Notes under the pieces: generated by a model
What the model was told of the DNA's origin: nothing
Database searches by the model: none
Seen by the model: the letters and a program-made list of their open reading frames with translations, nothing else
Source: Favolaschia claudopus
Lineage: Eukaryota > Basidiomycota > Agaricomycetes > Agaricales > Mycenaceae
Assembly (NCBI GenBank): GCA_037176885.1
Contig: JAWWNJ010000068.1
Span: 1,240,001 to 1,304,000 of the forward strand
Direction of reading: 5' to 3'
DNA: 64,000 bases
Program-made: the position numbers and the translations under genes
Shown: piece after piece, positions 23,896 to 56,877 of the stretch
Numbering within the stretch: position 1 is the first letter of the stretch
How the letters are laid out: the number at the start of each line of letters is the position of its first letter

Positions 23896-23921
23896 CGCCG
23901 TTATTTGGCTCCTGGACAAGC

Positions 23922-23929: not shown

Positions 23930-24005
23930 GGGCGGCTTTCGTCTCTTCAACTCATCCTATCCCCGACTCTCCGCCTCCTAGAACGTCTCTCTCCACAATT
24001 TTACC

Positions 24006-35189: not shown

Positions 35190-37351
35190 TCAAAGCATAC
35201 CGATTAGCACACAGTTCACCGCAAAGCGCTTCATGGCCGTCAAGATCGTTTCGATTGCCTCGATCAACGATTGCTCTTGTTGCAAATTCGCGACATCACC
35301 CAACGACGATACAGACAGTGCATTGTTTATTCTGAGCAGACTCAACTCCGTGATAAAGACTTGACCGGTGGCCATGAGCAGTGTCTGTTCTGTCGTCAGT
35401 GTTCATGTGGCATGGAAAACGATTGGGGAACCGAACGCTGTCAGACCTACCCCCATGATCGGATCGACCGCAGAAAACTCGTCCCCATCTAGATTCAATC
35501 TCTTAAGAAATTCCACCACCGTACGCGCCGAGTCCATGACTCTCAGCCTCGAGGTATCATATTCCATGACAAAGGGATTGTGTAGCTGCATCGTCGCGAC
35601 GTGCGTCAATGCGTGAATTACCAGAATCTCCCGAGCCCTTGGTCCTTCGACAGCGTGGTTGTTGAGAATAGCATGTAGGCTCGTTGACTTGAACTTCTCC
35701 AGTAGAGAGTCTAGAGAGGTGAATGCAGCGCAAAATTCGGTGTTTGGTGCCGTCGACTCTGAGTGCAGGAGACTTCGATCAATCACCGATAAACCTCTCT
35801 AAGTTGAACGCCACCCACCTTCTCGCTTTCTCTCAGCCACTAGCGCCGCCTGTTCGAATAGAATTGCAGCTTTTGAGTGCAACGATCTCAGCGACAGTCC
35901 ATTGCCGTCGTTCTCCGTGCTATCAAGGAAAGCGGTTATCGTGTTGGTCTCTCCGTTCCCAGCCGGCATTCCAGGTTCCACACGCTCTGTATCCCCAGAC
36001 TCATTGAAGTCCGCCGGCCATGGCGTATCAACCCTTGCATTCATGCCTCCTCCACCATTACTTCCCGCCAACAGCATGTTAGGCGGCGACCCGTCGGCCG
36101 TCGTCCAACAGCAGCTCAGCGTCAGAACAGTCCAGAAAGCATTGATGCGTTCGTTCTGCTCTAGTGAATTCTGAGCGGGTGGGAGGAGGGAGGCAGTGGA
36201 AGACGGGCCGCCTAGCAAGTTGACAGTGGACGGTGAATCCACATTCGAATGAGCAGAACCAAGTCGGTGAAGATGCGAGCAGAGGACGAGGGAGACGGCT
36301 GCGCTGATGTGATATTTTGCTGAACAAAAAAATGAGCCTTGTAGACAGCTATACATACTTCTACTAAGTACGTACCTTCGATAATCCTCGCATTCTTGAG
36401 AAAATAATACGACAACAGCACCTCAGCTTGGATCGCGTGAATGATGCTATTTCGATGCTGGTGTGCTCCCGGCGAGAGTGCTTCGACAGACGTGCGGAGG
36501 GCCTGTGAAAGATAGAGTGATTCGTATACAGTGAAATCAGGTGAGCCGGAGAGGCTTATAGCGAGGAGAGCAACAACGTCTATGAGGGCCGCCGTCGGGC
36601 GGGGCTCGGTGCGACCCATCAACGACTCTTCGAGATTCTGGACGTTGAGGAAGAGGCCAAAGTGAGAGCTATGGTTGTAGAGGAAGCTGTGGATACTGAT
36701 GATACGAAGAAATATGAGCAATTGAAGTAAGACCAAGAAGCCGACTTACAGCCTTCCCATTTCAGCAACCGGGATCAGCTATATTCAAACTTCAGCGCCA
36801 TGTATGTCTCAGTACAGGATATGTGAGCTTACCGCAGAGTTCAATACATTCGACAACGAAAGATCAAAAGCCGCGCTCCCAAATATGCTAGCCACGTTGA
36901 GATTTTGAATAGAGACCATCGACTGCTTGCGACGTGACGCGGTTGATCCTTCTTGCGACTGCGTGAAGGGATTCCGAAGAAAAACCGTATCGCTAGGCGA
37001 GGATGGATTTTCCAATTCATGTATCCGAGCTTCGAGAATCGAGATTTGCTCTGTGTAGAAGGTCAGAAGCAAAACCAATTAATTGCTGAGGTTGGTTCAT
37101 TATGCTGACCTTCGAGCATCTGTATTCGGCTAGGACCCGCATCATCATATTCGCAGTCTTGGAAAGCTAGGGACCGCGAACATGGGCCGCACCTTGGACG
37201 CTGCTCATCACATTTCTATCATAGCGTTCAACGAATGATCAAACTTGAAGTCAATCCAGTGTCCACTTACGACTTTGCGTCGCCGGCAATTTGTGCAGGC
37301 TTTGATCTTCGGGGTAGCAAACGAGATAAACTTTGTCTCGTTTTGCGCCAT
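35190..37351 (-). CDS. Zn(II)2Cys6 transcription factor
   Basis: Eight exons: 37351-37271, 37215-37110, 37050-36833, 36778-36750, 36695-36376, 36337-35819, 35758-35451 and 35384-35190; 591 aa. The binuclear zinc cluster near the N-terminus has Cys19, 22, 29, 36, 39 and 48 (C-x2-C-x6-C-x6-C-x2-C-x8-C), split by intron 1, followed by a short coiled-coil segment (EQISILEARIHELE). The middle matches the fungal-specific transcription factor domain: AKYHISAAVSLVL, NERINAFWTVLTL and the typical ARVDTPWP. The regulated pathway is unknown. The neighbouring protease and MFS genes are candidates only by proximity. Confidence 0.88.
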
Positions 37352-38019
37352 TGTGTGTTCTCAGGAGACTGGGTGACAGGACTCGTCGCCCGACGTACTT
37401 ATACCGTCGATCTCCGCGTTCATTGTGGCTGGTCTTCGACGAACAAGACGGAAGCAGAGATAATAAAGATGGGTTGTTCAGCGGCATGAATAGATTTTGA
37501 ACGGATAGTCGGCTAAAGTTCGAGGGAGGGTCACAGCTAGCCCGCCGGGTCCGCTCATGCGCCAGTTACTGCCAATTAGCTTCGAGTTTCGAGTCCGATT
37601 TGGAAGATTCATGGATAGCATCCATTGCTGAGTGTCGTGCCAGGGGAGGACGATTAGCCGTATATCCGGATTTTCAGATTGCGAAGCGCCATGCTCGGGC
37701 ATTACCTGAGCCGATGTCGACGATGCTTGAGCTGTTGGTGGACGCTTGGTGGACGCTGAGGAAGGCGTGAGTAAGCGGGGTCGGGATGACGCGGGATCAA
37801 TTCGGGATGAATAAGCTCCCACATTACTTCACAAGCTGACCAATGATGATTAAGCGTTCAACAATGAGAAGTTGAGAACACAGGCAAATATAAAGTTGCG
37901 TAGACTTTGTGCAAGGTTAACCTCGGAAACATAAGCACAGATTAGAATGAATTCTTGAACGACGTGACAAAAAGTTTCGTTCCAAGCCCTTCTCAAATTC
38001 ATTATTCAGGCTGAAATGC
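37352..38019. other. Intergenic region left of the transposon
   Basis: Holds the Zn2Cys6 gene promoter. A 114-codon open frame on the minus strand (37,822-37,478) has an ATG but no recognisable domain and no paralogue here; I leave it uncalled. The last bases are the transposon target. Confidence 0.35.
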
Positions 38020-38027
38020 AAGGGGGT
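38020..38027. repeat. Target-site duplication, left (8 bp)
   Basis: AAGGGGGT directly abutting the left terminal repeat. An identical octamer abuts the right terminal repeat at 54,270-54,277. Confidence 0.9.
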
Positions 38028-38428
38028 ATGACGTTCCAGGCGTTGCAATAATCAAATGCAACAAATATTTTCCTGTGCAGGAAAAAAAAAACTAAGAAGT
38101 GCCCGTATAGGCCTGGTAGCATAGGTACATGTCTTATATGCCTCTGGGAGGTCTCCGCTCGAACGATTGCGCTCAATTTTCAGCGGAAAGCATCCATCGG
38201 GCCAGGTTGGCCCGATTTGATTGGAATCAGCACAGCCGAAATCTCCGTGAGCCCACGCCTTCATTTTCTTGTGCCTTTCCGCTACGTACCTCAACGTTTG
38301 TACCTCACATACGCGCTTGGTCTCAAGGTGCAGGACCCCGACCTCGCATGCTGGAAGGATGTCACATGTCACAGGACATGAGGGCTGTGACTTGACGCGT
38401 CAAAAAGTGTCCACCGTGGACAATTTCA
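38028..38428 (+). repeat. Left terminal inverted repeat
   Basis: About 400 bases matching 53,869-54,269 reversed, with only a few differences. It contains three palindromes: TTTTCCTGTGCAGGAAAA (38,068-38,085), a 21-base one starting ATCGGGCCA (38,196-38,216), and TGTCCACCGTGGACA (38,408-38,422). Confidence 0.92.
38408..38422. promoter_or_regulatory. Palindrome TGTCCACCGTGGACA, copy 1
   Basis: Perfect 7-bp arms around a central C at the inner edge of the left terminal repeat, preceded by GACGCGTC. The same composite (GACGCGTC, A-rich spacer, palindrome) occurs at 47,108-47,122 and 53,876-53,890. Confidence 0.7.
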
Positions 38429-38592
38429 AGCGCTGTTACGGAGGGATGGGGATGGGGCTCTGTAAGGTGTGTATACCTTTACTCTTTCATTTCACACAGG
38501 GAGCTCACACTCCCTCACAACTTTTCTGTTGCTAGACAGGCAAGAACATCGTTTACTGTTCGTCCCATTACCAGAGGCAAAGGCTGTATATA

Positions 38593-40571
38593 TCAATGAA
38601 AATGAGAAAGAACGTCTAAACCCTGCACCCAAAACCTGGCCCGCTCTAACCAGATAGGATGAGCTAAGGATACAGGAATCTTCTTCTTCATGAGCCGCCC
38701 TGCAGCAAGAACCTCGACATCAGGGTAACCGTCAACGTCAAATTCCTCCGGCAACACCCCGTAGCCTGCTGGCACTACATCTTGCCTAACCACCTCTGCA
38801 AGAACTTCAAAGAAGCTATGCTCCATCTCCTGGTTGTCGCCAAAGGGATTGCGATTGTCGGGCACCTCAATTGCCTCGTGCCGAATCTGGGGATTTTGGT
38901 CACCTCGAATGCGATCTTCAACGTCGTCTTCATCCTCCTCGTCCGGCGGATTCCCTGCACCTGATGTACGCCGCGCTTTTTCCTTGCCGTGAACACCGTA
39001 ATACTTTTCTATGGTATCTGGATGTAAGATACCGCAGTCGTCGCGGTCTCGATAGACTCCGAATTTTGCTTTTCCCCAGAGGCGCATGTCCTAGAGGCGG
39101 ATCAGAGCCGTTGAGACAGACAACTTTGAAACGTACGTTGGGACTCTTGTTGAAGGTCTCCTTCCCGTCCATGGGATGCGCATTCCATTGGGTCTGAAAC
39201 TCAGCGCAGTCTTTGTTAATGGCGTCAAGAAACAACGTGTGCAACAACCACAGATGTTCTGGTTTTCCGACGTCCAAACAATGAAGACGCTCTAAGCGCA
39301 TGAAGAACCCCCGCCAACGCCTAACAAACTGGCTGCCAACTTCAACCCACATGCGCTCTATGCGAGTGTTCCGGGTAGAACTGATTTCGATTCATTGAGT
39401 GAGTAGTCCTATGAAACAAAAACGGCATTCAACTTACGAGCCCCATATGAAACTTGCGCGGTTTGGACCATTTCTCATCACCATGTAGATAGCGCAAGCT
39501 ATGTTCTCCCCGCCACGGTCACCTCGTAGACGGGATGGGAAGCCGTACTTGTCGGCTGCTTCCAACATGACATCCAGCACAGTCGCCGAGGTGTTGTTGT
39601 TGCTTCCCCGTATGCCAGTAAGCTATTGACAGAGTTGAGTCAGGATTCCACCGTATCTGAAACTACTGACCGTCCGACAGTATCCGTCAGCAAATCCGTG
39701 AAGGACCACCCCCCACCGAATCATCTTATGGTGCCCGTCAAGATGCCACAACGCATTCGGTCTTCTGACGTTGTATACCTTTCGCTTGATTATATCCCGA
39801 TGGCGTAAAACACGGCCCAGATTGTCCACGCGCCTCAAGGAATACATGACCCTCCTCCTTTGCATGCGTACTCCTCTGGAGCGAAGAAAACCCATCAAAT
39901 ACCGGAGGCCAGACTCAGGCTTGTCTCGTTTGAATCTTCGCACCAGCTCATCGAGATCATGGTCTGACAGGGCAGAATATTCTCTTGTGAGTCCGAACTT
40001 CTTCATATGGCGATAAAGGGTCGTTCGATGACACCCCAGTAGAGCTGCTAATTCGACTAGCTTGATCTGTCTCTCCGGCCGAATGGCTTCTGCCACGAAT
40101 TGGAGATTCATGGCTTTGGCAGGGCGGCCTCGTTTTCCGGTGCGTACATCCGGCTCAGCCAGCATTGGAAAGTCGATCTTTGCATCCTCCCTAGTAATGT
40201 GTTGAGACAATAAGCTTCAAGTTATCGACATTTCCTTACTTTCCCTTAGCTAGGTCTTTCACGTGCAATAATACAGATACGACGTCGCCAAGGAGTCCTG
40301 CCACCCCATCAAGCCAGCCAGGAGGTAAGGGAGTTTCATCAGAATGTTCAGATTCTCCCAGAGTAACCACAAGCAGCATCGCGTCCGAGGTAAGAGCATC
40401 AATATGATGTGATACTCGCGACGAGTCCAAGTCTTCCTCTTCTGTCACGCCACGAGCATGGTTGTACAATTCCTCTAGAGCCCGGTGACTTGCTAATACG
40501 TTCGCAGACCAACGGTCATAGCCTGGGGGCAGATTCGGAAGCGGAGGAAACGATGCTGGTAGACGGGGCAT
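38593..40571 (-). CDS. Integrase-fold DDE transposase
   Basis: Five exons: 40571-40240, 40190-39671, 39622-39438, 39380-39137 and 39090-38593; 592 aa. Order: a helical N-terminal region, an AT-hook-like GKRGRPAK, a helix-turn-helix (LAALLGCHRTTLYRHMKKFG), an IS3-like linker (SGLRYLMGFLRSRGVRMQRR), and a retroviral-integrase-type catalytic core. The catalytic triad is Asp262 (WHLDGHH), Asp319 (RGDRGGEN) and Glu354 (TRIERMW), with 34 residues between the last two, as in DD(35)E enzymes. The C-terminal region is acidic. The gene reads outward toward the left end. The start is uncertain: an in-frame GTG lies upstream but ATG 40,571 is the first ATG, and the divergent BTB gene begins only 77 bases away. 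Confidence 0.85.
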
Positions 40572-40648
40572 GAAAGGCGTTGTTTGAGCTTGTTGTTGTT
40601 TGGTCTTGTGGGTGCCCCTCACACTCTCTTTGTTTCCGTTCTCCACCT

Positions 40649-41665
40649 ATGGCCACATCTCCTGCTCCTGCACCCATTCGGAGCACCAAGTACTACGATG
40701 ACACTCTTGGTTACCCTGTTTTCCTAGTGAGTCAATGAATTTTTACTTTAACGGAATCATCGTTTTCATGTTATCTCGTCAGGTTGAGAATACCCTGTAC
40801 AAATTGGACCCGCACGCCATCTTTTGCTACTCCCCCGTACTGCAGGACATAGCTTCCATCCCTGGCCCAGGACTTGTACAACAACAGTCCTCAGACACCA
40901 ACCCAATACCTCTTTCGCACCATGGCAAGGCCGAGTTCGAAATGTTTGTACGGGTTGCTTACGGAGAGTAAGGATTTCCTGCAGTCTGAATTGCATGGTT
41001 CTCATTAAATGTACAGTATTCCTGTTGCAGATGACTACGGCAGAGCTGCAACTGGCCTACCTTTAATCGTCAAGTCCCTCGAACTCAGCCAATTCCTCAT
41101 GGCGCCATTGTTTCGCAAGCATTGTCTGACCATGATTCAGCAAAGAACGTGGGCCATTCCCGGGGCCAAGTTGATCTTTCTGTCGTATCACTACCGTACC
41201 AGGCTTTTCTTCGAAACCGCTTTCCACCACCTAGCCTCGTCACCGCTCCGTGACCTCACTGTTGAGGATGTCGACCTCATAGGTTTCCGTGCCTATGTTG
41301 CCTTGGCAAGGCTTAAGGAAGCTCACGCTGAACACCGCAGCATTCTTGCGGCAGAGGAACCAGTTTTCGATCATGATCAGAGGCAACACTCTATGGGATG
41401 CCTGGATCACGAGGCTTGCGAAGAAGACTGGCATCGTGTATGGTGGAACGGGATGGGTCGTTGTTTGTTAGACGGGCGCAAACCCCTCACGTACACGTCA
41501 AGCAGAGAATATCTCGAAAGCATGCATTTTGGTCGGATGAGCCCAGGGTGTAGGATGATAATGCTTCAGAGCATCAAGGACGACGAGGGCAACTCACACA
41601 TTTATGAAATGACCAAGACCGTTGCTACCTTCCTCATGACTGAGATTGTCGAAGATTTGGACTAA
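40649..41665 (+). CDS. BTB/POZ domain protein (transposon cargo)
   Basis: Three exons: 40649-40726, 40783-40967 and 41017-41665; 303 aa. The N-terminus has the basidiomycete BTB pattern: the YYDDTLGYPVFLVENTLYKL entry strand, then PIPLSHHGKAEFEMFVRVAYG and LPLIVKSLELSQFL. The rest is helical with several Cys/His residues (GCLDHEACEEDWHRVWW). BTB proteins oligomerise and can link substrates to cullin-3 ubiquitin ligases or act in chromatin. Divergently transcribed from the transposase with fewer than 80 bases between starts, so the two probably share a promoter. Unlike the BTB-like protein at 31,072 in sequence. Confidence 0.78.
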
Positions 41666-44600
41666 GGGCGATTATTTCTCTCTCTTATTTAGCCATCACA
41701 TAACACACTCATTTAGATACTCTCTACCGTACTCTACACATTACCTTACACAAGGCTTAATTGCATAGATTGGATTTTGCTTCACGACGTTGGCTGAGCG
41801 CAGGGGATTGCCCAATTTGGACTTCTTCCCAATTTGGAAGCCATTACTTCTTCTCTTCCTCCCATCCATTCGCTTGTGTATGCTTTCTAAATCAATCTCT
41901 ATTCATTTCTATCGTGATTACTGAATATATAAGGGTAGCACAGGGATTTACAGTGTAAGTCGAAACATTGTGTGGTATAACATCGAGCATCCAATCCAAG
42001 TCAGTCGGTCATAATTAGTCCTCCCCTCCGCCCCCTCCGAACTACAGACCCCACCCAAAACACACTCAACCAGAACCACCACCGCCGCCACAACCCCAAC
42101 CCTCCTCTCCCCCCCTTTCTCCCCGCCCCATTGCCTCCTCCCCCACACCACAGCGTCGATATGGCGCTGACAGCGTGTATAGCGAGCGAATCTTCGCACT
42201 GAGCACCGATGCAGGCGAATCGGTGTGGTCGAGCATTGTGTTCCCGTCAAAGATGCCGCATGCCGCGTAGTACTGCAAGAAGGCGTAAGGTCTGGAAGAT
42301 AGACCGGTAGTATTCGACGGTGGAGTGACTGTAGCGCGAGGTGGTGATGACAACATGTGGTAAGGGACGAAAGTAGCGGGATGATGTCGTTCCGCATTCG
42401 GGTGGAATCGTGTCGAGCCGAAGAAATCGAGACGCAATGTTGCCGATGGCGACACGGCGAGCTGCGTAAGAGGTGAGGGCAAGGATCAAAGGCTGCGTAA
42501 CGACATACCGTCCTGAGCCCAAGTGGTAGGAGACACCTTGAGCAATGAAGTCGAGGGAGCGAGCAGCAAGCTCGACGATGGCTGCTTGTGTATTTTCTGA
42601 TTGGGAAATGGACGTGGCGCAGTATCGTTCGAGCGCACGGATAGTCGACATCCAACCCGACATTGGCGTAGGACTTGCCTGAGGTGAAGGACGAAAGAAT
42701 AGGTCATAAATGCTACATAAAAGTAAGTAAGAGTCAGTGGATTTGCTTGTAATGAAAACAGCACGGATGCACGCACCTTAAGCTCGCCGCAAATGAGCGA
42801 CAGTCAAGCCGTTTGTATTTTTGTCGCATACCCGTTTGTTGGACCAAGGACGGCGGGCTCGATTCGCGATTTGGCAGAAGGTGTTGACGATGACCGTTTG
42901 TTGATTGATTTGGGAATGCAGGTCCTCCGTAAGCTGTTGTTCCGCGTTCGATGCAAATCGGGTCGTGGAAGACGTGGATTCATGGTGGGGTGGGGGGAAT
43001 GCACAACGGGCCGTTGGAAAGAATATGTTGTTGCCGACGAGAGACACATTGCTTGAACCTTTGTTTGAGTCAGACCAAGATATGCAATAGAAGATGGGAA
43101 TAACTCACACAAGAACACGGCCAAGATGACCTAGTGTATGGGCTTGGTGAAAATCTGCGTGCAAAGCGACTGCGTAATCGACATGAGGGGACCGCTCAGC
43201 TTCGCGTTCTCTGCAAGGTGGGTGTTGGTCTTCCTGATATGCGTCACGACCTCAGTCAATTCCAACCCAGTGATGGACAACATGGGCGGGTCGGTTCGAG
43301 TCAAATCGGGGCAAGTGTAGGTTGAGAGTAAAAGGGCGGCGAGGCGGCGGCACTGCGCGACGTGACGTGACGTCAAGGAAAGAATATTGTGAATGCTAGA
43401 TATGAGTAAGACACTGCATATATTGAAGCCAAAAAAAAGTTTGAATACACGCACCTCGAACTTGCCGCAAACGAGCGACAGTCAAACGGGTTACACCTGC
43501 ATCAACGGTGTATCGACCTTGATTGATGTCGACGTGGCCTCGAGTAGCGGAGAATCGGCGGAGAACGCCGAGCGTAGATGTTGGGCGAGGGTCCGACGAT
43601 GCAGACAGCACAGAGGGTGGCGGTGGGTGGATGGGCCGCAGAAGTGCGACTGATAGTCGCTAGGTCTCCGGCTTGACCATATTTGGCACCTGAGTACTTG
43701 GCGACGGGGAGATCGTAGAAGGCGATGGAAACGTTCGAAACGGCGGTGCCGTAGCTGAGTTGAGAGCGAAGGTGACTGGAGGTGAGGAAGCGGTGGCACA
43801 AAGAAGGAAAGAGATGAGGGAAAACCGCACATCGATGAACCTCGAGGTGTTGACAACGTGCGCAGGACCTTCCTCTCCCACCGCAGATTCGTGGCGCAGG
43901 TCGATGAGGGCGGGGGTTACCTGCGATGCGGGGAAAGAGGAGCGTTAGTTAATTCGGGGTTTGAATCAAGGACGGAGAAGAGAAAAGACGGATAATTGTT
44001 AATTGAGGAAATAGCGGAGGGTAGAGACGCAGACTCGATGCATAAGAATGAAAACGAAGTCGGAAAAGAGCGAATACAAAGTCGCGAAAGAAAGAACGAA
44101 AACTCAGTCAAGAAAACACTCACCACAATCCCCCCAACCCCAACACCTCCTGCACCTCCCTCACTCTATTAACAACCCACCCTCCCGGGGAGTCATGGCG
44201 GGCAGGCGGGATGCCGAGGTTGTGCGGGTCTCCGCAGCTTCCTTAGCGTTGCCGAAGTCGACGCGACTCGCGCTAGATTGATCTGGGTACGTCGGAGAGT
44301 TGATTTTCATTTGTTCGCGTCAAAAAAGAAGCAACTCAATTTATTTTGATTCTAGTGCAAGTCTTTGAGCGAGTCGGCGCGCGTAGCGCCGACATTGACG
44401 TTGTTGTTGTTGGTGTCGACGGAAGGAGGCGGCGCCGACGTTGGCTAGCGCGGAGTTGATCTGTGTAGACAGGTAAGCTATCTCCTTTCGTTCGCTGTGA
44501 AAAACGAGGATACTCACTGAGAATTGGATAGCGCGTTTCTGAGCGAACCGGCGCTAAAAACGCCGAAACGGCGTCGTTATTCTTGAGAGGGTCGAGGAGG

Positions 44601-45442
44601 GCGGCGGCGGCAACTGATGTGGTAGCGGCGTGGCACGGGATGGATAATTGAAGGAGATAGTTGAGTGTGTCGGGAGGGCTGGAAAACGACGGAATACGCC
44701 GGGACGACGCTGTTGGTGAGGTTGCGACGGTCGGGCGGTCGAGATCGAGTGGCGGCGGCGGTTACGAGTCAAAGGAGGAGTGGGGCTAGGGGAGACGGGA
44801 TGTCGTTAGGAAGGCGCGGGAGGGAGGAGTCGATCGGGGACGCACCTTGTATTTACCGCTCTGTAGATATGTACGGGTCGGTGTCGGCTTCGCGAAGCGG
44901 GCGGCGGCGTCGAAGACGCGGGGAGTCGTCGGGTGTACAGTGAAAGAAGCCAGCACTGAGTTCAAAGGTTAGTCAACGCACCGTTTTACAGTAATCGCGC
45001 CGACTCACATTGTTTCAGTTGAGGAGTTGTCCGCGTTGAGGATGGGCACATTCGAGCGCAGTCTTGCAGCGCTCGTAGACGCGCTGGCGGAATATCAGGC
45101 TAAAGATCAACCAAGTCAATGAGCAGCGAGGATTCAAAGGTGAGTAAACACACCAATTTCGTGCTCCTCGGCTAATTTCCCTACAAGCAAGTATGGCGTC
45201 TGAGTCGACGCTACTTGGAAATGTCAGCAAAATCGTAATACGAGGTAAGTGCAGAACCACGTACCTTGAAATTAACTGGATTTGACGGTCGTCTCAGGGC
45301 CGAACGTCCGGAAGGGAACTTGAAAGGAGAGAGGGCGGGAGGGCATGAACGAGTCGCATGGCGGACTGAGGATGGCATGAGGAGCGCGTTTACCCGACGT
45401 TCAGAGACGATGTATCGGCAACGGCCGAAAGCAAAGCGGACT

Positions 45443-45712
45443 TTGCTGACATAAGTATGCAGCCGCAGAGTCGCCCGACACGCGACCAAACACCACGCAA
45501 CCCAACAGTGAAGAGCCACCAAGCCGGTTCGCACCGTGTGCGCCTCCGGCGACCTCACCGGCAGCAAACAGTCCGGGAATGGGCTTGCCGTTCGAGTCGA
45601 TAACGCGCGACTCGGCGTCAATCTCCAAACCGCCCATAGTGTAGTGCAGCACGGGAGTCATGACGGCGACGTGGAAGATGTCATCGTACTTCCACTCGCC
45701 AGAGAAGAACTG
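45443..45712 (-). pseudogene. Captured fragment of a fumarate reductase (FAD-dependent)
   Basis: About 90 codons matching the C-terminal part of the FAD-binding domain of OSM1/FRDS-type soluble fumarate reductases: MTPVLHYTMGGLEIDAESRV, GKPIPGLFAAGEVAGG, HGANRLGGSSLLGCVVFGR. It starts right after a splice-acceptor-like GGTGCAG, so one exon boundary was carried along. The sequence upstream does not resemble the rest of the enzyme, and the match ends after AAYLCQQ, so only this piece is present. Family enzymes regenerate oxidised flavin under anoxia; this fragment cannot do so. Confidence 0.8.
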
Positions 45713-47107
45713 CACCAAACGTCAGTATAAAAAGCTTTAATGGGATAAGCAGGCGGATGACCTCGGAGAGGAGCGTACAGGTATGATGGGGGACGAGTGA
45801 GTGAACGATTTGGCGGAAGGACGTGCGGGTGGGTCTGCAGTGGACTTTGGCAGTTAGCCGAGTTTCTTTCAGCGACGAAGCCAAGGAAGCGAGGAGCATG
45901 GTGGTGTCTATGGCATCGACGAGCGACTGCTGATGCACAAAATCTTCTCTAAGAACCTCAGCGGAGATCCACTCGATCTCGCCTTTCTCTGTGTACACCG
46001 GTGAGTCATTTCGTTGCGTTTGAATCGCGGAAAAACTGACCTAAATATGATTTTGATTTGAGCGCGTTTTTAAGCGCGTCGACGTGGTGCATCGAGACGT
46101 CGGGAGACGATGTCAGCGGCGATGGTAGTGTTTTCGCGTCGCTGAGGCGGCAGTGTGTGAGAGCGGCGTCGGGTGTTGGAGAATTGAGTTGGGGCTGGAA
46201 CAGCGTGGAACGAAGGCAGCGAAACTCAGGACCAAACGATATGGTGAAGGCGGAGGCGGAGATGGGTCAAGGCGGGGAAGAGGTGGGCTAAAGTAGAAAG
46301 GGATGGCGTTAGCAAGGCGCGGGAAGGGAAAGGAAGGGTGGGACGCACTTCTATACTTCTCTGTCATTGTGTATACGCGTCAGCATCGGTGTAGCTACGC
46401 GAACGGGGCCAGCAGCGGTCGGGCGAGGGGTCGGCGAGTGCGAATTAAGAGGAGGCAGGGTAGTTGATTGCAACTTGAGGAAAGGTGTGTCATTGCAGTA
46501 GTCAGGGAGAAGTTGCGAGAAGGGAGTTGGGGGGCGCTGAGGTGAAAGGAGGCTAACGAGAGCGGGGGTGGAGATTCTACGAGTGGAGAAAACGTGTTAG
46601 AATGAAGACGCAGGAAGACGAGGGAAGCACGCACATTCGCGTTACCAGCACCATTCTGCCTGTTTCCTCGCAGCTCGCGTTCTCCTCCTCTGGCGCATAA
46701 TGTTACGCTCGGCCGACATGCCGCAAAGACGTGGAAGGCGAGTAGGGCGATGAAGGCGTTGAGGGACGGGCGAGGAATAAGGTATTGCTACGTTGGTTGC
46801 TTGAGGTTACAAAGACGAGTCGATCGTCATATTCCAGAGACCGGGCGGCATTCAACGCAGTGTTGGCATAAAGGTAGTTGACGTAGGAGGCGGAGGGGGA
46901 GCAAACACACAAAACAGCGGCGGGGTAGGCTGAGAGCGGAAGTGATGGGCGGCCGAAGGTGGTGGCACTGGATGAGAAGAAACCAAGTGTTGTTGGCTAT
47001 TTGCCAGCATCCTCTTGCACTTACTTGCGTCGCGTTCAGACACGGTCCATGGACGCGCCAGTCACCCGTCACACCAACACTGGGGGGTGACTGAACGCGT
47101 CGAAAAT

Positions 47108-47122
47108 TGTCCACCTTGGACA
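47108..47122. promoter_or_regulatory. Palindrome TGTCCACCTTGGACA, copy 2
   Basis: One base off the perfect palindrome, preceded by GAACGCGTCG, 30 bases upstream of the dioxygenase ATG. It matches the composite at the inner edges of both terminal repeats. Likely part of the dioxygenase promoter or a second transposase-binding site. Confidence 0.6.
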
Positions 47123-47151
47123 ATTTTTGACAGCTCACCCACTTTGCGCTC

Positions 47152-50100
47152 ATGTCACCAAAATACTTGCTCAAACTCGACGAGGCTGCTCTTGCTCGGC
47201 TTCTTGAACTCGCTGCTGCCTCCAGTGACCCTGCTGACTCTGAACTGGGCTCTTTTCTGGCTGCTGCTGCTGCCTTGCAGCCCGCTGGCGACGATGAGCT
47301 GGCACAAGATTCTGTCGAACAGCCCTCTTCTGGAATGTCAACCCCAACGGCCATACTTCCGCCGCCTCCACCTCAAATTCAACGAGATCTCCATACTAGG
47401 ACTCAGCATACAGCAGATCGTCCGTCGACGCGTCCGTCGACGCGTCGTCCGCGTTCGTTGAGCTTACCACCTATGCCTGTGTCTACCCCCAAAGGTATAG
47501 TGTATACTGCATCTGACGCTGGACGGCTTGAACAAATGCTTTGTTTTAGATTGGGATTCCAGCGCGTTGTATACACAGCGAGAGCCTCCCCCGCGGGCGA
47601 CACGCACTCCGCTGTTTCTCCCTTCACCAAGCCCTTCGCCATCACGAACTCTTGCACCTTCATCTCCAACTCGTACCTCTCCATCCCCCACGCTTCGTGA
47701 TTCCCCTACCCCCATGTCTGTGGACCAACAACATAAAATGCCACATGGCGCCATCAATCCCAATGGCAAGCGTATAGCAGAGTTGGCCCCCACGTCTCTT
47801 GACCAGCACGCGGTGTCGCCGTCTGGACACAACAACTCGGAGGGAAATTGCGGCGAAGAGGAACATCTTGCTTCGGGTGAGAAACTGATGCTTCGGTTTA
47901 AGATGCCTGAGCATGTTCGGGCGCAGCTGAAGGCTGCCGGAGGAGGTGGAGGTGGTGGGGCCGCTGGTGGAGGAGGTGGAGGTCGCAGCGAGTGCCCGAG
48001 GAAGGGTGATGGAGGATGCGTTGGAGGCGACGGTGATATTGGGCACATCGACTGCGATGACCAGGCATGTGCCCGATGTCATCCCGTCCCACGTATTGCC
48101 CCGAATGATGTAGCTGCGGCAAACATGAGAGCGGCAGCTGAAGCAGCGTTGAACCGTCACCCAGACGGGGAGTCGGAGATTGACTCTGCTGGTCGGGCGT
48201 CGGGCGATATGGACAGCGATATGGACAACGGTGACAACGTCAGTGAAGGGGGAAGGCGGGGGGCAAAAAGAAGGAAGACTGGCTACCGTGCCAACGGTAA
48301 TGGACCACCTTTGACGAAGGATGCTGGATTGCTTCTTTCGGAGTTGGTCGGTGCTATGTTCACCAAGGAGGCGCGCCTTGATTTGGACAATTTTCTTAAT
48401 GGGTTGGGGAATAATAGCAGTTACCGGTTTGATCATCGTGCGCCCCGGGATTTGAAGGAGACAGCCCGCCGTCTGCAACAGCTAGAAAATCAAAACCAGA
48501 TTGGCTCTTTCTGGTACATGGTGACGCTCGTGCAACTGGTCTTGCATGTCGACAGGTGAGTTTTCATGAATGGCTGAAAGGAAATTGCTAAACAGACACT
48601 CAGCATACGCGCAGATGCTAGGCTCAAGCGAATCCATGTACCACCCATGGACCAAATCGCCAAAGATCATGGCATGTCGAGAACCACTTTTGGGAGAAGG
48701 CTCGAGAGCGGCACAAGGCTCATGTCCCTGTGCGCAGCTAGTAGGCACTTCGCTCATATCTGATGAACTTTCACTAATGTCGTTGTAGGCAGTCCATATC
48801 TCCTCGTCTTGATTGCTGTTACCAACAAACAGGAAGACTTCGCTAATAACCGTCGGAGCTCCGATAAAGATATCAAAGCACTCGCTTCGGCTTTGAGAGA
48901 GGTCTCCCGTAAGCTATTATCCTTCACATTATCTGCAAACTCAGCTTTTACTCTTTCTAGATGACAAGTGGGGTACTCTTGTCAGCCGCCTGCGTATACC
49001 TCTACAATATGTCCGGAACAATTCCCCCTTTTTAACTGGCCTCAGCTTCTGCCACCAAATTCCACAACCTCACGGGCAACCAACACGGCGCGAAAATATA
49101 CCGTTCTATAGTGTCATGCAAACGGACTCCGTCTTTCAGAGTATCACAACAAAGTGCGTGATGGCTTGCTTCATCTCATCACCTCTGATTTTTTGTGCAG
49201 TTTCGAAGTTCTACCTCCCCGCTCTCCAGTATGGGGTACCCCTGTGAGCGCCTGGAATGTCTTCAACGACGTTAGCGACCTTCCACTACCCGACGTACAT
49301 GTCATCGAAACGCCTGATGAATTTGTCAAAACACTGTCTCCCGTGAAGGCAAGCACTACCGATCGTTTCACTGAAGAAGCTAGGGCAGCAGCAGAAGATT
49401 CAGATATCGCTCTAGATCTCGAAGACCTAGAGGAAATGGTAAGGGTGTTTCTTCATAGTATCTGTGTCAAACTTAGCGATGCAAAGATTAACGAAAAAAA
49501 CCGGAAGCGCTATATTGAAATAAATACAAGTTTTCTAAACGGGTGAGCTTTCAACATCGTACGTGCATAGTTTACTTATCATTATATAGGAAAATTCTCC
49601 GAATTCAGGACCCGAATGGGAAACTGCTTTCGGACGTATTCACACTCCCCGAACATTTATATCAGAAGCTCAAGGACGCAATCGCTCTCATACAAGGAGC
49701 CATGCCTGGAGAGTGGAAACATGACACGTCTCTTCGCGAGGCTTACCGCTTTCTGTCCTGTCACTACTCGTGGTATGCACGGTACGGAGAGAAGGTATGT
49801 CTGCGTTTATCTTTTCGGTATGCTGTTAACTGTCTACAGGGTCATACGGCACCAACAACAGCAGCTCATATGGACCACGTTCAACGGGGTCATGGGGGCC
49901 GTATCAATTTCTCTCAACGCACTCCTCATCAGTCTAAAGAAATACGTGAAAACGCGCGGGAATATGCAGTCCTTTGTGATGCTTATGAAGAAGTTTTCGA
50001 TTATATTCGTGTCACGGTAAGTGAAGGTCTCTTTTCCAGTCAAGGTCCTGAGTTTTGGATAGCTACAGAAGCGCTTCCCTGACCAATACAAAGGCTTGAG

Positions 50101-50455
50101 CATCTATTGTGACGCTCTGCCAATGAATGCCTCTAGCCCATGCTATCCGTTTGGGGGTTTCGTGCTGAATCTACGTGTGGCTACAACAGCACACCGGGAT
50201 CATGGTGATAAGGACCTTTGTGTCGTCATCCCTTTCGGAGATTTTGAAGGTGGCCAACTCTGCCTTTATGAATTGGGTTATAAGTTTGATTTGAAAATGG
50301 GTGATGTCTTGATTTTTCCGTCTTGTGACTTGACGCATTTCAATATGCATTTCACGGGGAAGAGGGGGACGTTGGTTCTGCATTCGGATAGGCAGGGGGA
50401 TGAATGGGTACGGGATTGTCGTGGTTGGGGGCCATATATTAGTCGATTCTCTTAA
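47152..50455 (+). CDS. TET/JBP-like Fe(II)/2-oxoglutarate dioxygenase
   Basis: Nine exons: 47152-47494, 47550-48555, 48604-48740, 48789-48908, 48961-49153, 49201-49542, 49590-49794, 49840-50016 and 50069-50455; 969 aa. The C-terminal double-stranded beta-helix has the metal ligands His883, Asp885 (THRDxxD context AHRDHGDKDL) and His931 (LTHFNMHF), plus the 2-oxoglutarate-binding Arg940 (GKRG), with IPFGDFEGGQLCLYE and GDVLIF strands as in agaricomycete JBP/TET-type oxygenases. The family oxidises 5-methylcytosine or thymine in DNA. The N-terminal 400 residues are disordered, with Pro/Ser-rich and poly-Gly runs and a basic GAKRRKTG likely for nuclear import. The middle (DARLKRIHVPPMDQIAKDHG) is conserved-looking but unassigned. 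The substrate is inferred, not shown. Confidence 0.85.
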
Positions 50456-50699
50456 TATCATTGTTACTGTCGATTCTCTTAATATCGTTGTTACTCAAAT
50501 CGAAGCTCAATGAACGCAACAGATGAAAAGAGTGACAACCATTATGTGTTTGATTCAAAGTACGGTAGTGGCAGACTATCAGACGAGACCCATAGAGCGC
50601 AGAGAGTGTGTAGTGCAGGTGCAAAGCAAAAAGCAGCAACTATTAGAGAGAGTGGAATAGTAATGATATCAGTGAGAGGACGCCAATGCAACGGCTTGA

Positions 50700-52273
50700 T
50701 TAGAGTCGAGGAAATTTGTAGTCTTTGTGCCAAGGGTTAACGAAGGCAGCCTGGAACAAGTGCCTGTTGTTGGCCTCCCACAGAGGAAGCTCTGTTCCGG
50801 TAATGAAAAGAGGAGGGGGAGACACCAAGCAACGAGCTTGCAAGTCATACAAGAACGCCCCCATGTTGTTCAGACCAGCTGTAAACTCGTGAGCAGCTTT
50901 ACACAAATCGTGGACTAGCTTACCGTGGTCGTCCTCCTTGAAGTTTGATGCGAGTTTGGAGGTGGAAGCCAAGGGAGTCTCCGACTGCTTGCCTTTCACT
51001 TGGACCAAAGAAGTTGAGTAGAAGAAAATATCCATGAGCATAATAACCTACCAGCTAGTTTCACCTTCTTGGATACAGGTGTTTCGTCGTTGTCTGAATC
51101 CGATACTTCAAAAATGTCGAGCTGCCGCTTACGAGAACCTGGGAATGATCTTGGTGAGAAAGAGAGACTCGGTAGTAATACTCAACACACTTACGCGTTA
51201 GCGGTGTAGTGCTCGTGTCAAGATAGTCCTCCTCGTCGTCCATGTTGCCATCATCATCCACTGGCACCTCAGAGGTGTTTTCGACGTCAGAAGAAGGCGC
51301 CTCCTTAGGCGGTCCCTTATACCACGAACGATAGACACTTTGAGGCACGGCTTTCTTCAGTACTGGTGAAGGTGTGTTATCAATAAGTCAAACAAGAGAA
51401 TAGTATGTACCCACCGATGAAGAGAAAGGAACCGCGATCGTTCTTCAGTCGGTGTTGACATAGGGTCTCGCCCGTAGGATTGAGTTCGTCGATGACCTCC
51501 ATGGTCTGATAGTACTTACGGACAACGAACCAGGTACCTTTCCCAGCCTCCACCCCCGCAAAGGCAAAAGCTTTGCGAAACAATTTGGAGAGCTCTGAGG
51601 TGCATTCCGCGTGTGACCAAGTTTTGGAGACCGTCACGTTCTGACTGATACACCCATACGCCCTCCGAACACTGACCTCCTTAGGTGTTGGAGCTTTGGA
51701 ATAACCACGGAGCTGGTGTTTCTAAAAAGGTGGATGTCAATGAAGATGCGCTGGGCGGAAGTACGCTGAGGACTCACGCTGTTAACACCGCAGGTAAGAA
51801 GGATTATCTGGTCAAACTTGACATTGACAGCGGGTTTCTCCTTCGCTGAACCCTGTTGGAGCAGGCTTTTCCAGTCAGGCTATAGAGGAAGACTGATTAC
51901 TTACGGGCTTCTGCTTTGGTGTTTTCTTGGATACCTCTTTGTCTTTAATACGGTAATTCTTGAGGGCATCTTGTTTGGCTTCCTCGATGTCGACGACACG
52001 GTGGATAGCCGGAAGAGCGTCTGTGACATGTTTACTAGCGCGAGCCTCAAAGATAGCTGTTACTGTTGGCCTAGAAGTTTTCGACGGCGGAGGTGTGTCA
52101 TTGTCCTCAGGCTGACGGCGAGGAGGCTGTTGGACTGCGTCAGGTCTCCGTGGACCATGTCGACTCTTGCCATGTCCGCACTCCCGACAAATAGACGGCG
52201 CATTAGGATCGGAGGGAGGATCGTACTCCTCACAAGTACAATGGTTGCCGTTCTCCAATGTCTCTCGACACAT
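50700..52273 (-). CDS. Cys-rich transposon accessory protein
   Basis: Six exons: 52273-51905, 51879-51778, 51721-51415, 51362-51195, 51138-51052 and 50998-50700; 443 aa. The N-terminus has a small Cys/His cluster, C-x9-C-x-C then C-x2-C-x4-H (CRETLENGNHCTCEEYDPPS and SICRECGHGKSRH), likely one zinc-binding unit. A middle region with many aromatic residues (GTWFVVRKYYQTMEVIDELN) and two acidic, basic-patch-flanked linkers (SRKRQLDIFEVSDSDNDE and SKKVKLA, a possible nuclear signal) follow, then a helical C-terminus. I recognise no catalytic domain. Convergent with the dioxygenase gene, with which it may work. Function unknown. Confidence 0.75.
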
Positions 52274-52535
52274 ACTGAAAGACAGTTGGAGAGGAGCAGA
52301 CGAGAAGGCGAGAAAGCAAAAGACGAGAGAAGGAGAAAGAGAGAGAATGAACGACCCTGACGGAGCCTTGGATTTTTTTAGTGCCATCAAATGAACCTTA
52401 CTGAACATAGGATTTGCGGCTTCTCTTCTCACCGCTTGGGACCTCATTCTACCCTGCCCTGCACCTCGATGCTGCGTCAACTGAATCTCCTTCCGGATTT
52501 CGGTCCGTTTCCCTAGCCCTTTGCTCTGTACACCC

Positions 52536-53768
52536 ATGAGCTCCAATCTCCCCCCCGAACTCATAGAGCAGACTCTTGACTGTCTTGAAGAAAGTCAAGA
52601 TTATGCAAATTGCTCTCTACTATGTCGTCACTGGAATCCGTGTGCCCAGGCACGCCTCTTTTGCACCGTAACCCTAGGTGCAGGTATCGATGGCGGGCAG
52701 CCTGATGGTCTCATTGACATCCCTCATCTGGAGTCAACTGTCAACACATTCCTCGCTTTTGACGAGTTGCTTTACGGTTCTCCCCATCTTGGGAGCTACG
52801 TACGCGTCCTCAACGTTGGTATACGGGGACATACATCGCCATTGACTCAGCGGTGGAAGCAGATGGAGGATGCGGTAGCTCGTATCATGCCATTGCTCCT
52901 CAACCTGCACACCCTCGGGCTATTTCCCTGTGCTCCGCTAGCTGGATCACCCATCCACATCCCTGACAAGCTCCGTTATTCGTTTGTAGGCTTCGATCTC
53001 AATGCCCTACGGCTCTCCGGCTGGTGTCTTGCAGATCCGTCTTCACTCATTGCCATCGGACACATTTTACCCAGCTCTTTGCATTTCTTTAATTGCAATT
53101 TTGATGCGCCATTCACTTCTGGACTGTCTCTTCAGTCAGACCTCCCACTACTGGCTAATCAGCTGGTGAATCTGGAGCTTAACCTCTGCAACTACCTCGA
53201 CATTTTTGTGTCAAACTGGCTTTCACGTCGTGGTAGCACAAAGATTCATACTCTGACTGTACACCTCCTTTACAATGGGAGTGTCACAAACTGGACCACA
53301 ATCCGAGCCCTCTACTCCATTGTGCCACTCATCACTGCTAAATTGCGTATTGTTTTTGAAGAAGGTACGTGAATCACCGTCTGTTATCTTTCAATTGCTC
53401 ATATCGACAAAGTCTACACTACAATTCTTCCATCCCTCAATCCTTCGGAAAAGCCACTACTATTCACGCTTGCCCCATTTTCGGGTATCCCTCATCTCCA
53501 CCTTCAATTTCTTGCCGTTGGGTTCAGAATGGTAGAGTCTCCGGAGGTTCATAAGTGGTTCGTGGACGCCTTTTCACAGGTGCACTTGAGAGCTGAGTCC
53601 CAATTGCGCATCTCTTTGGTTGGTCGATTCATGCACAAGCATGCTCCAAACTGGGAACATATTATGGACCATGTTTTGCAGTCAAATTTACGTATGCGTT
53701 TAGACAGTTGTCGCCTAGATTTGTGGCTTCCGGATCGTATCTTAGAGTACTTGTTCTCCGCACGTTGA
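52536..53768 (+). CDS. F-box protein (transposon cargo)
   Basis: Two exons, 52536-53364 and 53413-53768; 394 aa. The N-terminus is a clear fungal F-box (LPPELIEQTLDCLEESQDYA then CSLLCRHWNPCAQARLF), expected to bind Skp1. The remainder has leucine-rich irregular repeats (LLLNLHTLGLFPC, LNALRLSGWCLAD, LVNLELNLCNYLD) like other agaric F-box proteins and would choose the target. It starts 262 bases from the divergent accessory gene and ends 100 bases before the right terminal repeat. Confidence 0.85.
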
Positions 53769-53868
53769 TAGGTTCGAACTACTAATTCATTGCCAAGTCT
53801 CTTCAATGTCTCTATAAAGTACATCTGATACCATCTGTACAAATTTTCAAAGGAAGAATAGTGCACCG

Positions 53869-54269
53869 TGAAAATTGTCCACGGTGGACAGTTTTCGACG
53901 CGTCAAGTCACAGCCCTCATGTCCTGTGACATGTGACATCCTTCCAGCATGCGAGGTCGGGGTCCTGCACCTTGAGACAAGCGCGTATGTGAGGTACGGA
54001 CGTTGAGGTACGTAGCGGAAAGGCACAAGAAAATGAAGGCGTGGGCTCACGGAGATTTCGGCTGTGCTGATTCCAATCAAATCGGGCCAACCTGGCCCGA
54101 TGGATGCTTTCCGCTGAAAATTGAGCGCAATCGTTCGAGCGGAGACCTCCCAGAGGCATATAAGACATGTACCTATGCTACCAGGCCTATACGGGCACTT
54201 CTTAGTTTTTTTTTTCCTGCACAGGAAAATATTTGTTGCATTTGATTATTGCAACGCCTGGAACGTCAT
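53869..54269 (-). repeat. Right terminal inverted repeat
   Basis: Reverse complement of 38,028-38,428 with few differences, including the same three palindromes (53,876-53,890; 54,081-54,101; 54,212-54,229). Confidence 0.92.
53876..53890. promoter_or_regulatory. Palindrome TGTCCACGGTGGACA, copy 3
   Basis: Perfect 7-bp arms at the inner edge of the right terminal repeat, followed by GACGCGTC; mirror of copy 1. Confidence 0.7.
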
Positions 54270-54277
54270 AAGGGGGT
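54270..54277. repeat. Target-site duplication, right (8 bp)
   Basis: AAGGGGGT directly after the right terminal repeat, identical to 38,020-38,027. Confidence 0.9.
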
Positions 54278-55120
54278 ACTGAAACCGAAAAAAAACACCT
54301 CACGCTGCTTTTTTTGTTAGAGACCCTTCGCCGGGAACCACCCTACCACGTGACGTCCATATATGGAATTTACCATAAAAAACAGCTGTTCAGCAGCCAA
54401 TATTTGTCTCAGGCGTCGTAGAGCGGTCTACACAATGTTTTATGAGTGAGATCTCTCATTCAAAAGTATAAAAACACTACTTGAAATTCCAACACATCTC
54501 GGTATTGACGATACCAAATACGGCCAACTTGATTGCCGGTCCCATCCAAATCCGGACAATCCACCAAACAGGCTTCCGAATGGTTCCTGAAGGTCAGAAC
54601 TCAGTGTATACAGTGGTAAAATTGGTTTCTACTCAACCCGAACCCTCACAGACCCATTCAAACCCAAAACATAAGAGGTCATTATTTTTTTTTATCCGGC
54701 TTAGCGGCTGACCCACCCTCCCTGCCCGGTGTGCCGGCTTCTCCGGCCCGCACCCCCTTGCTGAAATGCAACTGAAATGCAAATGGTTGGTGGTAAATAC
54801 AAGGTGAATTTGGATGGAGCCTGGATACAATTGTATCAACTAACGAGCTGAACAAGATATATTGCACGAATCACGAAATTGTCGACTATGTACTCGATTG
54901 AAACGAAGCACTGAACATGCTCAAAACTTGTAATCGAGTTGAGTCCTTTCAGGTTTCGATCGGTCGCAGACTCTCGTAAGATCCCACTATACAACGCGCG
55001 CTAGATAGCGAACGCAAGGCTTAGTATACATAAAATCAGATATGAAAAAGGAACTTACCGATGTGCCATATTCGCATGCGTGTTACCGCTCCTCCACTCC
55101 TCTACCCGACTTCACCCACT
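54278..55120. other. Intergenic region right of the transposon
   Basis: AT-rich, no exon supported. A poly-T/A-rich stretch and a short GC-rich patch (54,700-54,765) are the only compositional features. Confidence 0.35.
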
Positions 55121-55405
55121 TCATGCGAAGAATTCGCGGTGGGTACTAGGCACCCCCGATGGAGGAGCAGGAAGGTCAATCGAGACGACGCTGCTTCTTT
55201 TGCGACGAGGAAGATTTCCTATCGTCGGACCAAGATGACCTTTTGCCATGATGTGTGCAGGCGCGACGGCAGGTGCGAAGGAGATAGTCAGATCCCACCC
55301 GCATCGCTCGCGGAGGGTCCGACTCTCAGCGGGCGGCGGGGTGCACAGATGGGTGGTTGGCGCATTACACTGTGCAGCGAATAATTGAAGTTGGATGTTG
55401 GACAT
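55121..55405 (-). CDS. Hypothetical small protein
   Basis: Single open frame of 94 aa starting with an ATG and ending at a TGA. A TATAATAT-like element lies about 140 bases upstream on the minus strand. There is a basic patch (PRRKRSSVV) and no signal peptide, membrane segment or domain that I recognise. It does not end in a CaaX box, so it is not a lipopeptide pheromone precursor. Low confidence as a real gene. Confidence 0.3.
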   Translation of the reverse strand: MSNIQLQLFAAQCNAPTTHLCTPPPAESRTLRERCGWDLTISFAPAVAPAHIMAKGHLGPTIGNLPRRKRSSVVSIDLPAPPSGVPSTHREFFA

Positions 55406-55884
55406 GGTTCTGCGAATGAGCTAATTGTTTGGACGTAGGGTTGCGATAGGATGGTGGCAATGTACGTTGGGCAATTTAAAGGGTTCAAACTTTTGAGGAC
55501 GATTTTGAAAGTGTGGATGTGGTGTGAAGTCTGCGAATATCTGGGGGATATTATAGAGGCTCGAATAGGAGGAGTGAGACATGACTTATATTACATCCGC
55601 CTCATCCAAAAGAGTGGATCTAGGCCGGCATAGAAAACCTGTGGGTCTCGAATCTTGCGCACTGCTGGAAAGACGACTTTGCAAAATATGGTATGACATT
55701 CAGCAGCATATAGAAGTTTGAACGTGATTAAGGGCGTGGTCAATGAACGGATAAATCAAATTAACGGTGGTAGTAGAACTGGCGCAAGCTCACAAGGCCC
55801 TTTTCCCCTTTCGGCTGCTTTCTTCCATGAAGCAAGATATCTGAAAGCCAGTGAAAAATATGGGGGGAAATCTCAATTGAGCAC
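55406..55884. other. Intergenic stretch
   Basis: No supported exon or recognisable repeat. Confidence 0.3.
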
Positions 55885-56877
55885 ATGTCCAGAATTATGG
55901 GTGAATTACGCCGGACGGGGATCTCGGCGAGCCCAGTTTTCCGCTGTCTCAGAATCTCCGGTCTTGCTCAGCATCGCATCTGGTTTACTATTCAAACAAA
56001 TTCCGAGGTTGCAAGCATTTTCTGTGGATCGATCAAGAGGCCTTGGGCTGGGATGGTGGTGGTTAGAGTCGTCGCCGGCGGTCGGTGTCGCTGGCAAGGT
56101 GATGGCATCATTGGCTGCGTTGCCTTTGTTGACCTTCATCCCTTGCTCCAAGCTCAACCAAATATCACTTCCTGTTGTTCCCAACCGTCACGCTCTCTGC
56201 TCAAACGCCGATACCTCCGTCTTGATACTCTTCGAAACTCCGAGACTCGCTTTTTTTTGCCGGCTCCCTGGGCTCACTTTGCTGGGCATCTGCACGAGAA
56301 CTCTAGTCAGTCGGTCGGTAGGACCACTGGACCAGTCGCCTCCCGGATAACATCAACTCCTCTGCCTCTGGATTGCTGTGGAAATGAGCACACACTCCCT
56401 CGATCATTGGCCTCCGCCTTGTCCCATCGTGGAGTGGCAACTTCGATCCGATTTATCTCGAAACTTGAAAGAGTCGAAATTTCCGGCGCACCACTTGAAT
56501 CTTCCACTGAGTCGTCCCTTTCCTCCAGTCTTCATCCCAGTTCAAATACGCGTGCCCCTAACACTCTTCAAAACACCGAAGCTCGCGGTGATTCGGATCC
56601 CAGACTGACTCAAACGGGTTCAACTCTATCCAGAAATTGCTTGCTTTCCGCGTGCCTTCCTCAACGAACCCAAATAATCCACGCAAACAGGTTCCTTAAA
56701 ACTCGGAGGTTGTGCACGGCAGATCCTGAACTCCTGGGCATCCCTACGGATAACCTTTACGCAGGATTAAGCAGACTCGAGGTTCGACTCCTTGCGCCCG
56801 ACCTGAGCCCTCCCGGCCTCCTCTTCTACCTTTTTTGTTTGCTGGTTGGAGCTTACATTTTTTTTACTAGCCAATGA
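55885..56877 (+). CDS. Orphan open frame of 330 codons
   Basis: ATG-to-stop frame of 330 aa, longer than expected by chance in this AT-balanced stretch. It has no domain I recognise. The middle is Ser/Thr/Leu-rich and the C-terminus ends in a hydrophobic segment (LLFYLFCLLVGAYIFF) that could be a membrane anchor. Its last part overlaps a tRNA-like B-box repeat (56,775-56,802), which argues against a conserved protein. Real gene, gene remnant and chance are all possible. Confidence 0.3.
   Translation: MSRIMGELRRTGISASPVFRCLRISGLAQHRIWFTIQTNSEVASIFCGSIKRPWAGMVVVRVVAGGRCRWQGDGIIGCVAFVDLHPLLQAQPNITSCCSQPSRSLLKRRYLRLDTLRNSETRFFLPAPWAHFAGHLHENSSQSVGRTTGPVASRITSTPLPLDCCGNEHTLPRSLASALSHRGVATSIRFISKLERVEISGAPLESSTESSLSSSLHPSSNTRAPNTLQNTEARGDSDPRLTQTGSTLSRNCLLSACLPQRTQIIHANRFLKTRRLCTADPELLGIPTDNLYAGLSRLEVRLLAPDLSPPGLLFYLFCLLVGAYIFFTSQ

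What the first reader, a model, noticed from the sequence alone, without database searches (positions are those of the whole stretch)
38020..54277. Complete 16.2-kb transposon with an rve-type transposase and a TET/JBP-like cargo gene
Seen: ~400-bp near-identical terminal inverted repeats, perfect 8-bp target duplication AAGGGGGT, and five genes with open spliced frames. Known: fungal TET/JBP genes are reported with KDZ-type transposons. Here the only transposase has an integrase (D-D-E) core, so this association would be a different mobile system for the same class of base-modifying enzyme. Size and cargo are unusual for a cut-and-paste element.
Basis: partly seen in the sequence, partly recalled or inferred. 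Interest (0 to 1): 0.95.

Follow-up and report, generated by a model that had tools for sequence, protein, structure and literature searches.

The report
Mushroom transposon carrying a demethylation-type enzyme
An intact 16-kb jumping gene in a mushroom genome carries, beside its own integrase-like transposase, a TET/JBP-type DNA-modifying enzyme that may help it escape silencing; it is a new five-gene variant of a combination that was reported in other fungi in 2025.

Summary
The transposon is real, but its frame is slightly off. It spans 38027-54270, with 400-bp inverted repeats (98.75%), ends TATGACG..CGTCATA, and a 6-bp target duplication AGGGGG rather than the 8-bp AAGGGGGT. Of 16 paired insertions with these ends, 12 have exact 6-bp duplications and one (the window) fits 8 bp. 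TA..TA ends, 6-bp duplications and a DD34E integrase-like transposase (PF24764) match IS3EU/GingerRoot, not KDZ or hAT. Contig lengths identify the host as Favolaschia claudopus. A diverged sister element (C36, 19.7 kb, duplication GAGCGC) has the same five genes in the same order and orientation: transposase, BTB-like, TET/JBP, unknown, F-box. In all five, amino-acid-changing differences are rarer than synonymous ones. The two TET genes are sisters (100/98). The window copy sits in the end of a repeated MITE; two uninterrupted copies were read, and a homologous locus lacks both. The headline is partly anticipated: Kojima 2025 (PMC12730594) described TET+ IS3EU in rusts and a truffle. New here: an Agaricomycete host, different cargo, and a TET that is not PE-type and lacks the AG-type signature. 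The anti-silencing function is inferred.

The parts
38027..54270 (.). complete IS3EU-type DNA transposon, 16,244 bp, ends TATGACGTTCC..GGAACGTCATA
   Evidence: TIRs and TSD; sister element C36:502073-521800; 45 genome matches to the 30-nt end, control 0
38027..38426 (+). left terminal inverted repeat, 400 bp
   Evidence: 98.75% to the right arm over 400 bp
53872..54270 (-). right terminal inverted repeat
38021..38026 (+). target-site duplication AGGGGG, left copy
54271..54276 (+). target-site duplication AGGGGG, right copy
38593..40571 (-). transposase, 592 aa, 5 exons, PF24764 rva_4 1.8e-56, HTH upstream of the core, D262-D319-E354 (DD34E)
   Evidence: fold of the homologue P0001 matches retroviral integrase cores
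40649..41665 (+). 303-aa gene, 3 exons; BTB-like by eye only (no Pfam hit); conserved in C36 element (55% over 264 aa)
47152..50455 (+). TET/JBP-type 2OG-Fe(II) dioxygenase, 957 aa, 9 exons; HRD..H triad, PF12851 35.5 bits (cut-off 34.9)
50700..52273 (-). gene 4, unknown function, 442 aa in my model, 5 exons; 419 aa in the NCBI record P0091
52536..53768 (+). F-box protein gene (first exon 52536-53364; second exon to 53768 read by eye)
   Evidence: PF12937 1.6e-05, 25.0 bits over cut-off 24.3; C36 homologue 48%
47061..47127 (+). internal copy of the inner end of the TIR, in inverted orientation to 53871-53937, just upstream of the TET start codon
   Evidence: 67 nt, 78%; 41 nt, 90%; the same in C36 514209-514264 vs 521538-521592
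45401..45721 (-). FAD_binding_2 gene fragment, likely captured; no match to it in the C36 element
   Evidence: (4.4e-20)
38019..54760 (.). host context: a ~492-bp MITE (CAAGGGGG at 38019-38026, remainder 54271-54760) split by the transposon; the MITE's own 8-bp duplication CTGAAATG at 38011-38018 and 54761-54768

Best explanation
It is an apparently intact, cut-and-paste type DNA transposon of the IS3EU/GingerRoot kind that has taken a TET/JBP-type DNA-base oxygenase on board as a stable gene. The HTH plus integrase-like D-D-E transposase would bind the long inverted repeats, cut at TATGACG..CGTCATA and join the ends to target DNA with a 6-bp stagger (the ends and the 6-bp duplications are shown; the chemistry is inferred from the protein family). 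The TET/JBP enzyme probably oxidises methylated bases on the element's own copies and so lifts host silencing of the transposase gene (inferred). The BTB-like, unknown and F-box genes travel with it; degradation or redirection of host silencing factors by the F-box protein is a guess.
Against: No enzymatic, expression or transposition data. Transposase not aligned to Repbase IS3EU sequences, which are not on hand. Synonymous sites are saturated, so dN/dS is not measurable for three of five genes. The TET Pfam score barely passes the cut-off and the PDB sequence searches gave no significant hit (best 0.1). Structures are of homologues, not of the window proteins. No empty site for the exact window or C36 junctions was found in the assembly at up to 3 mismatches. 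Four of 16 pairs do not show a 6-bp duplication.
Confidence: 0.85

Rival explanations
1. The TET/JBP gene serves the host or is a passenger without a role in the element's own life cycle; its presence in the transposon is incidental.
For: The genome has many other TET/JBP-like hits (38 matches to PF12851, 22 over cut-off), and two window-type relatives whose surroundings were read (C1, C118) showed no PF24764 transposase match in the stretches fetched. The window element also carries a plain gene fragment (FAD_binding_2).
Against: The same five-gene set in the same order in two elements that differ at saturating synonymous divergence, with constraint on the TET protein (pN/pS 0.35), and sister position of the two TET genes.
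Confidence: 0.2
2. The element is a member of another superfamily with 8-bp duplications (hAT, or Zisupton of KDZ), as the reader's TSD would suggest.
For: The string AAGGGGGT occurs on both sides.
Against: 1 of 16 paired insertions fits 8 bp, 12 of 16 fit 6 bp; the transposase is PF24764 with no hAT or KDZ family among its Pfam hits up to E 1.
Confidence: 0.02
3. Composite origin: the TET-gene 4-F-box block was once a separate element bounded by related inverted repeats and was fused into a transposase-BTB element.
For: An internal copy of the inner TIR lies just left of the TET gene, inverted relative to the right TIR, in both elements (window 47061-47127 vs 53871-53937, 78%; C36 514209-514264 vs 521538-521592, 82%).
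Against: The internal copy is only 41-67 bp and could be a shared regulatory or protein-binding site; no free-standing TET-gene 4-F-box element was found, although the C7 copy lacked a transposase match in the stretch read.
Confidence: 0.25

Closest known systems
TET+ IS3EU transposons of rust fungi and Tuber indicum (Kojima 2025, PMC12730594)
   Same: Integrase-type transposase, TA..TA ends, 6-bp TSD, TET/JBP gene on board.
   Different: Rust elements end TAYGG..CCRTA and all known ones carry an alpha-kinase; this one ends TATGACG, has no alpha-kinase hit in its five gene models, and carries F-box, BTB-like and an unknown gene. Host is an Agaricomycete; the main text lists only Kyakuja, Zisupton, EnSpm, Plavaka and Helitron2 there (its Table S1 was not seen).
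IS3EU/GingerRoot superfamily (PMC10045372)
   Same: TA..TA ends, usually 6-bp TSD, DDE core without HHCC zinc domain.
   Different: 16-20 kb with five genes; 400-bp TIRs. No direct alignment to Repbase members made.
Kyakuja/Zisupton (KDZ) elements with AG-type TET, relatives of CcTET
   Same: Mushroom DNA transposons carrying a TET/JBP enzyme; the window TET's closest solved fold is CcTET.
   Different: Transposase of another family, 7-8-bp TSDs; the window TET lacks the Gly/Asp signature at H+5 and H+11 by ungapped spacing.

Membership tests
IS3EU/GingerRoot | TA..TA termini | tested here: met
   TATGACG..CGTCATA in all 16 pairs examined, which were chosen by that end
IS3EU/GingerRoot | 6-bp TSD | tested here: met
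   12 of 16 pairs; 9 of 13 distinct contexts
IS3EU/GingerRoot | integrase-like DDE core without HHCC zinc domain | tested here: met
   PF24764 and weak rve; Pfam hits upstream are HTH types, no zinc-domain family up to E 1
IS3EU/GingerRoot | transposase clusters with Repbase IS3EU in a tree | not testable with these tools
   Repbase is not on hand
TET+ IS3EU of Kojima 2025 | alpha-kinase gene in the element | tested here: not met
   no alpha-kinase family for the five gene models; a shared trait of the published families, not a definition of the superfamily
KDZ (Zisupton) | KDZ transposase and 8-bp TSD | tested here: not met
   PF24764 transposase, 6-bp TSDs
TET/JBP dioxygenases | Tet_JBP domain with Fe(II) triad HxD..H and 2OG-binding Arg | tested here: met
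   PF12851 35.5 bits vs 34.9; H, D, H, R invariant in 10 homologues (roles assigned from motif)
TET/JBP dioxygenases | TET fold | tested here: met
PE-type TET/JBP | HxE in place of HxD | tested here: not met
   HRD
AG-type TET/JBP | Gly/Ser and Asp at the CcTET 331 and 337 positions | tested here: inconclusive
   ungapped spacing gives D and V; L021 of the same genome has G and D at those spacings; no CcTET alignment made
PU-type TET/JBP | conserved residues of the rust type | not testable with these tools
   no rust sequences fetched

The most novel reading that the evidence does not exclude
A Mycenaceae lineage of IS3EU transposons acquired, independently of the rust and truffle elements, a fourth type of TET/JBP enzyme, and has kept it as part of a conserved five-gene module with an F-box protein, possibly a two-part anti-silencing kit assembled by fusion of two elements.
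Probability: 0.4. Interest if true: 0.62.

Novelty: new variant of a known kind. Interest (0 to 1): 0.5.

Why it matters
It extends the link between integrase-type transposons and DNA-base oxygenases to mushrooms, with two complete diverged copies in one genome under constraint. That makes a testable system for the idea that transposons carry their own demethylation machinery, and the F-box gene raises the question whether they also remove host silencing proteins.

Tried and rejected
8-bp TSD: rejected by other copies. In one search I first set the window's right end one base too far and got no TSD; corrected. KDZ or hAT placement: rejected. AlphaFold models were made for homologues P0065 and P0001 because spliced window proteins may not be accepted. 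PDB sequence searches with the TET gave nothing significant. Ends of the C215 transposase-TET pair were not found (shuffled control mean 0.5 chance pairs). For C7 the transposase end was not found in the stretch read. Exact empty sites for the window and C36 junctions: no match. BTB identity of gene 2: no Pfam hit. Contexts of the C29, C100 and C4 TET relatives (66%) were not read. Literature absence rests in an open-access library only.

Full report
Observation. The window holds two arms, 38027-38426 and 53872-54270, that are 98.75% identical over 400 bp in inverted orientation. That 8-mer is present on both sides, but it has two readings: an 8-bp duplication around ATGACG..CGTCAT, or a 6-bp duplication AGGGGG around TATGACG..CGTCATA. 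One copy cannot decide between them, because the host happens to have A before and T after the site.

Other copies decide. A scan of the window's own assembly (264.6 Mb, 460 contigs) with the 30-nt end, up to 3 mismatches, gave 45 matches (23 forward, 22 reverse) and none for the reversed-pattern control. I paired 32 of the 45 into 16 insertions (the window, one of 19.7 kb and 14 of 0.3-2.6 kb); 13 ends stayed unpaired. Of the 16, 12 have an exact 6-bp duplication, C86 has 7 bp, C85 a 10-bp direct repeat, C18 and C58 none. Four of the 12 (C250, C208 twice, C135) share one target context, which leaves 9 of 13 distinct contexts. The 8-bp frame fits only the window.

Host. The NCBI protein P0091 (gene 4) lies on a contig of 1,374,801 bp, the length of C68, and P0001 on one of 1,750,385 bp, the length of C36; both are named Favolaschia claudopus, a Mycenaceae mushroom.

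Sister element. C36:502073-521800 (19.7 kb, TSD GAGCGC, TIR of about 82 bp at 96%) has the same five genes in the same order and orientation: transposase (67-73% by segment), BTB-like (51-55%), TET (52%), gene 4 (30-44%) and F-box (48%). Over aligned codons, leaving out columns near gaps, pN/pS is 0.17, 0.32, 0.35, 0.48 and 0.46 (558, 270, 733, 310 and 236 codons). Synonymous sites are saturated (dS infinite in three genes), so these are only signs of constraint. In a tree of 35 TET rows (26 of the 28 homologues, the window and 8 loci of this genome) the window and C36 are sisters at 100/98. In the transposase tree the window, P0001 and P0002 form a clade at 100/100; within it the window is closer to P0002, a shorter record on a 20-kb contig, than to P0001. 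A third, incomplete copy on C7 has the right end (flank AGGGGG), TET and gene 4 in the same arrangement; no transposase match was found in 3174500-3181500. C117:370292-371650 is a truncated right end, 94.6%. On C215 a transposase (51%) and a TET (54%) lie 3 kb apart on one strand, ends not found. TET relatives on C1 and C118 had no PF24764-type transposase match in the stretches read.

Mobility. The right flank 54280-54760 belongs to a repeat with 40 matches scored of 286 candidates. Two of them were read (C141, C196): both run uninterrupted through the site, C141 as CAAGGGGGTACTG and C196 with one changed base. The element thus sits in the 5' end of a ~492-bp MITE, which has its own 8-bp duplication CTGAAATG. 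On C63 the sequence matching 35996-38001 (96%) continues directly into that matching 54760-55974 (93-98%), so this homologous locus lacks MITE and transposon; whether it is an allele or a paralogue is open. The target of the C250/C208/C135 group is found empty, with 2-3 mismatches, on C52 and C114. Exact junction patterns for the window and C36 had no match.

Comparison with print. Kojima 2025 (PMC12730594; abstract, sections 3.2, 3.4, Discussion part 1, Methods, legends and passages read, not the supplement) reports TET+ IS3EU with 6-bp TSDs in seven Pucciniales species and in Tuber indicum, all with an alpha-kinase gene, and for Agaricomycotina names Kyakuja, Zisupton, EnSpm, Plavaka and Helitron2. 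So the association is known; the Agaricomycete IS3EU carrier and its gene set are not in that main text. PE-type TETs have HxE; the window has HRD, so it is not PE. AG-type has Gly/Ser and Asp at CcTET 331 and 337; by ungapped spacing the window has D and V, whereas L021 in the same genome has G and D. PU could not be compared. The same paper notes that the function of transposon-borne TETs is not experimentally validated and proposes escape from methylation-based silencing, which I adopt as the likeliest role.

Internal repeat. A 41-67-bp copy of the inner TIR lies just upstream of the TET start codon in both elements, inverted relative to the right TIR. It may be a relic of fusion of two elements or a shared binding site.

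Noticed in passing
window 38011-38026 and 54271-54768: High-copy ~492-bp MITE, ends CAAGGGGG..CCCCCTTG, 8-bp duplication CTGAAATG; 286 candidates in the genome (40 scored). The ends look hAT-like (recall).
   Followed up: partly
window 45401-45721 (-): FAD_binding_2 fragment (4.4e-20) inside the transposon, absent from the C36 element; looks like a captured host gene piece (fumarate-reductase-like, recall).
   Followed up: partly
window 1422-5905 and 20694-25083: Large inverted gene duplication, 83-96% in twelve segments, outside the element; two of its long ORFs gave no Pfam hit.
   Followed up: no
L023, L024, L028-L030 and others (G000): Other TET/JBP-like genes in identical or near-identical copies, several close to contig ends (e.g. 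C5:45391, C34:41136, C28:54478, C32:42319), with an HPD motif unlike the window type.
   Followed up: no
L055-L056 (C215:215210-222028): Second PF24764 transposase-TET neighbourhood, same strand, 3 kb apart, TIRs not found.
   Followed up: partly
L059/L015 (C85:908435-911039): Insertion with the same ends but a 10-bp direct repeat GATGGTATGA instead of 6 bp.
   Followed up: no
P0093 (Scleroderma citrinum): Gene-4-like protein whose C-terminus resembles the start of the window's BTB-like gene (by eye), hinting that the two genes also travel together elsewhere.
   Followed up: no
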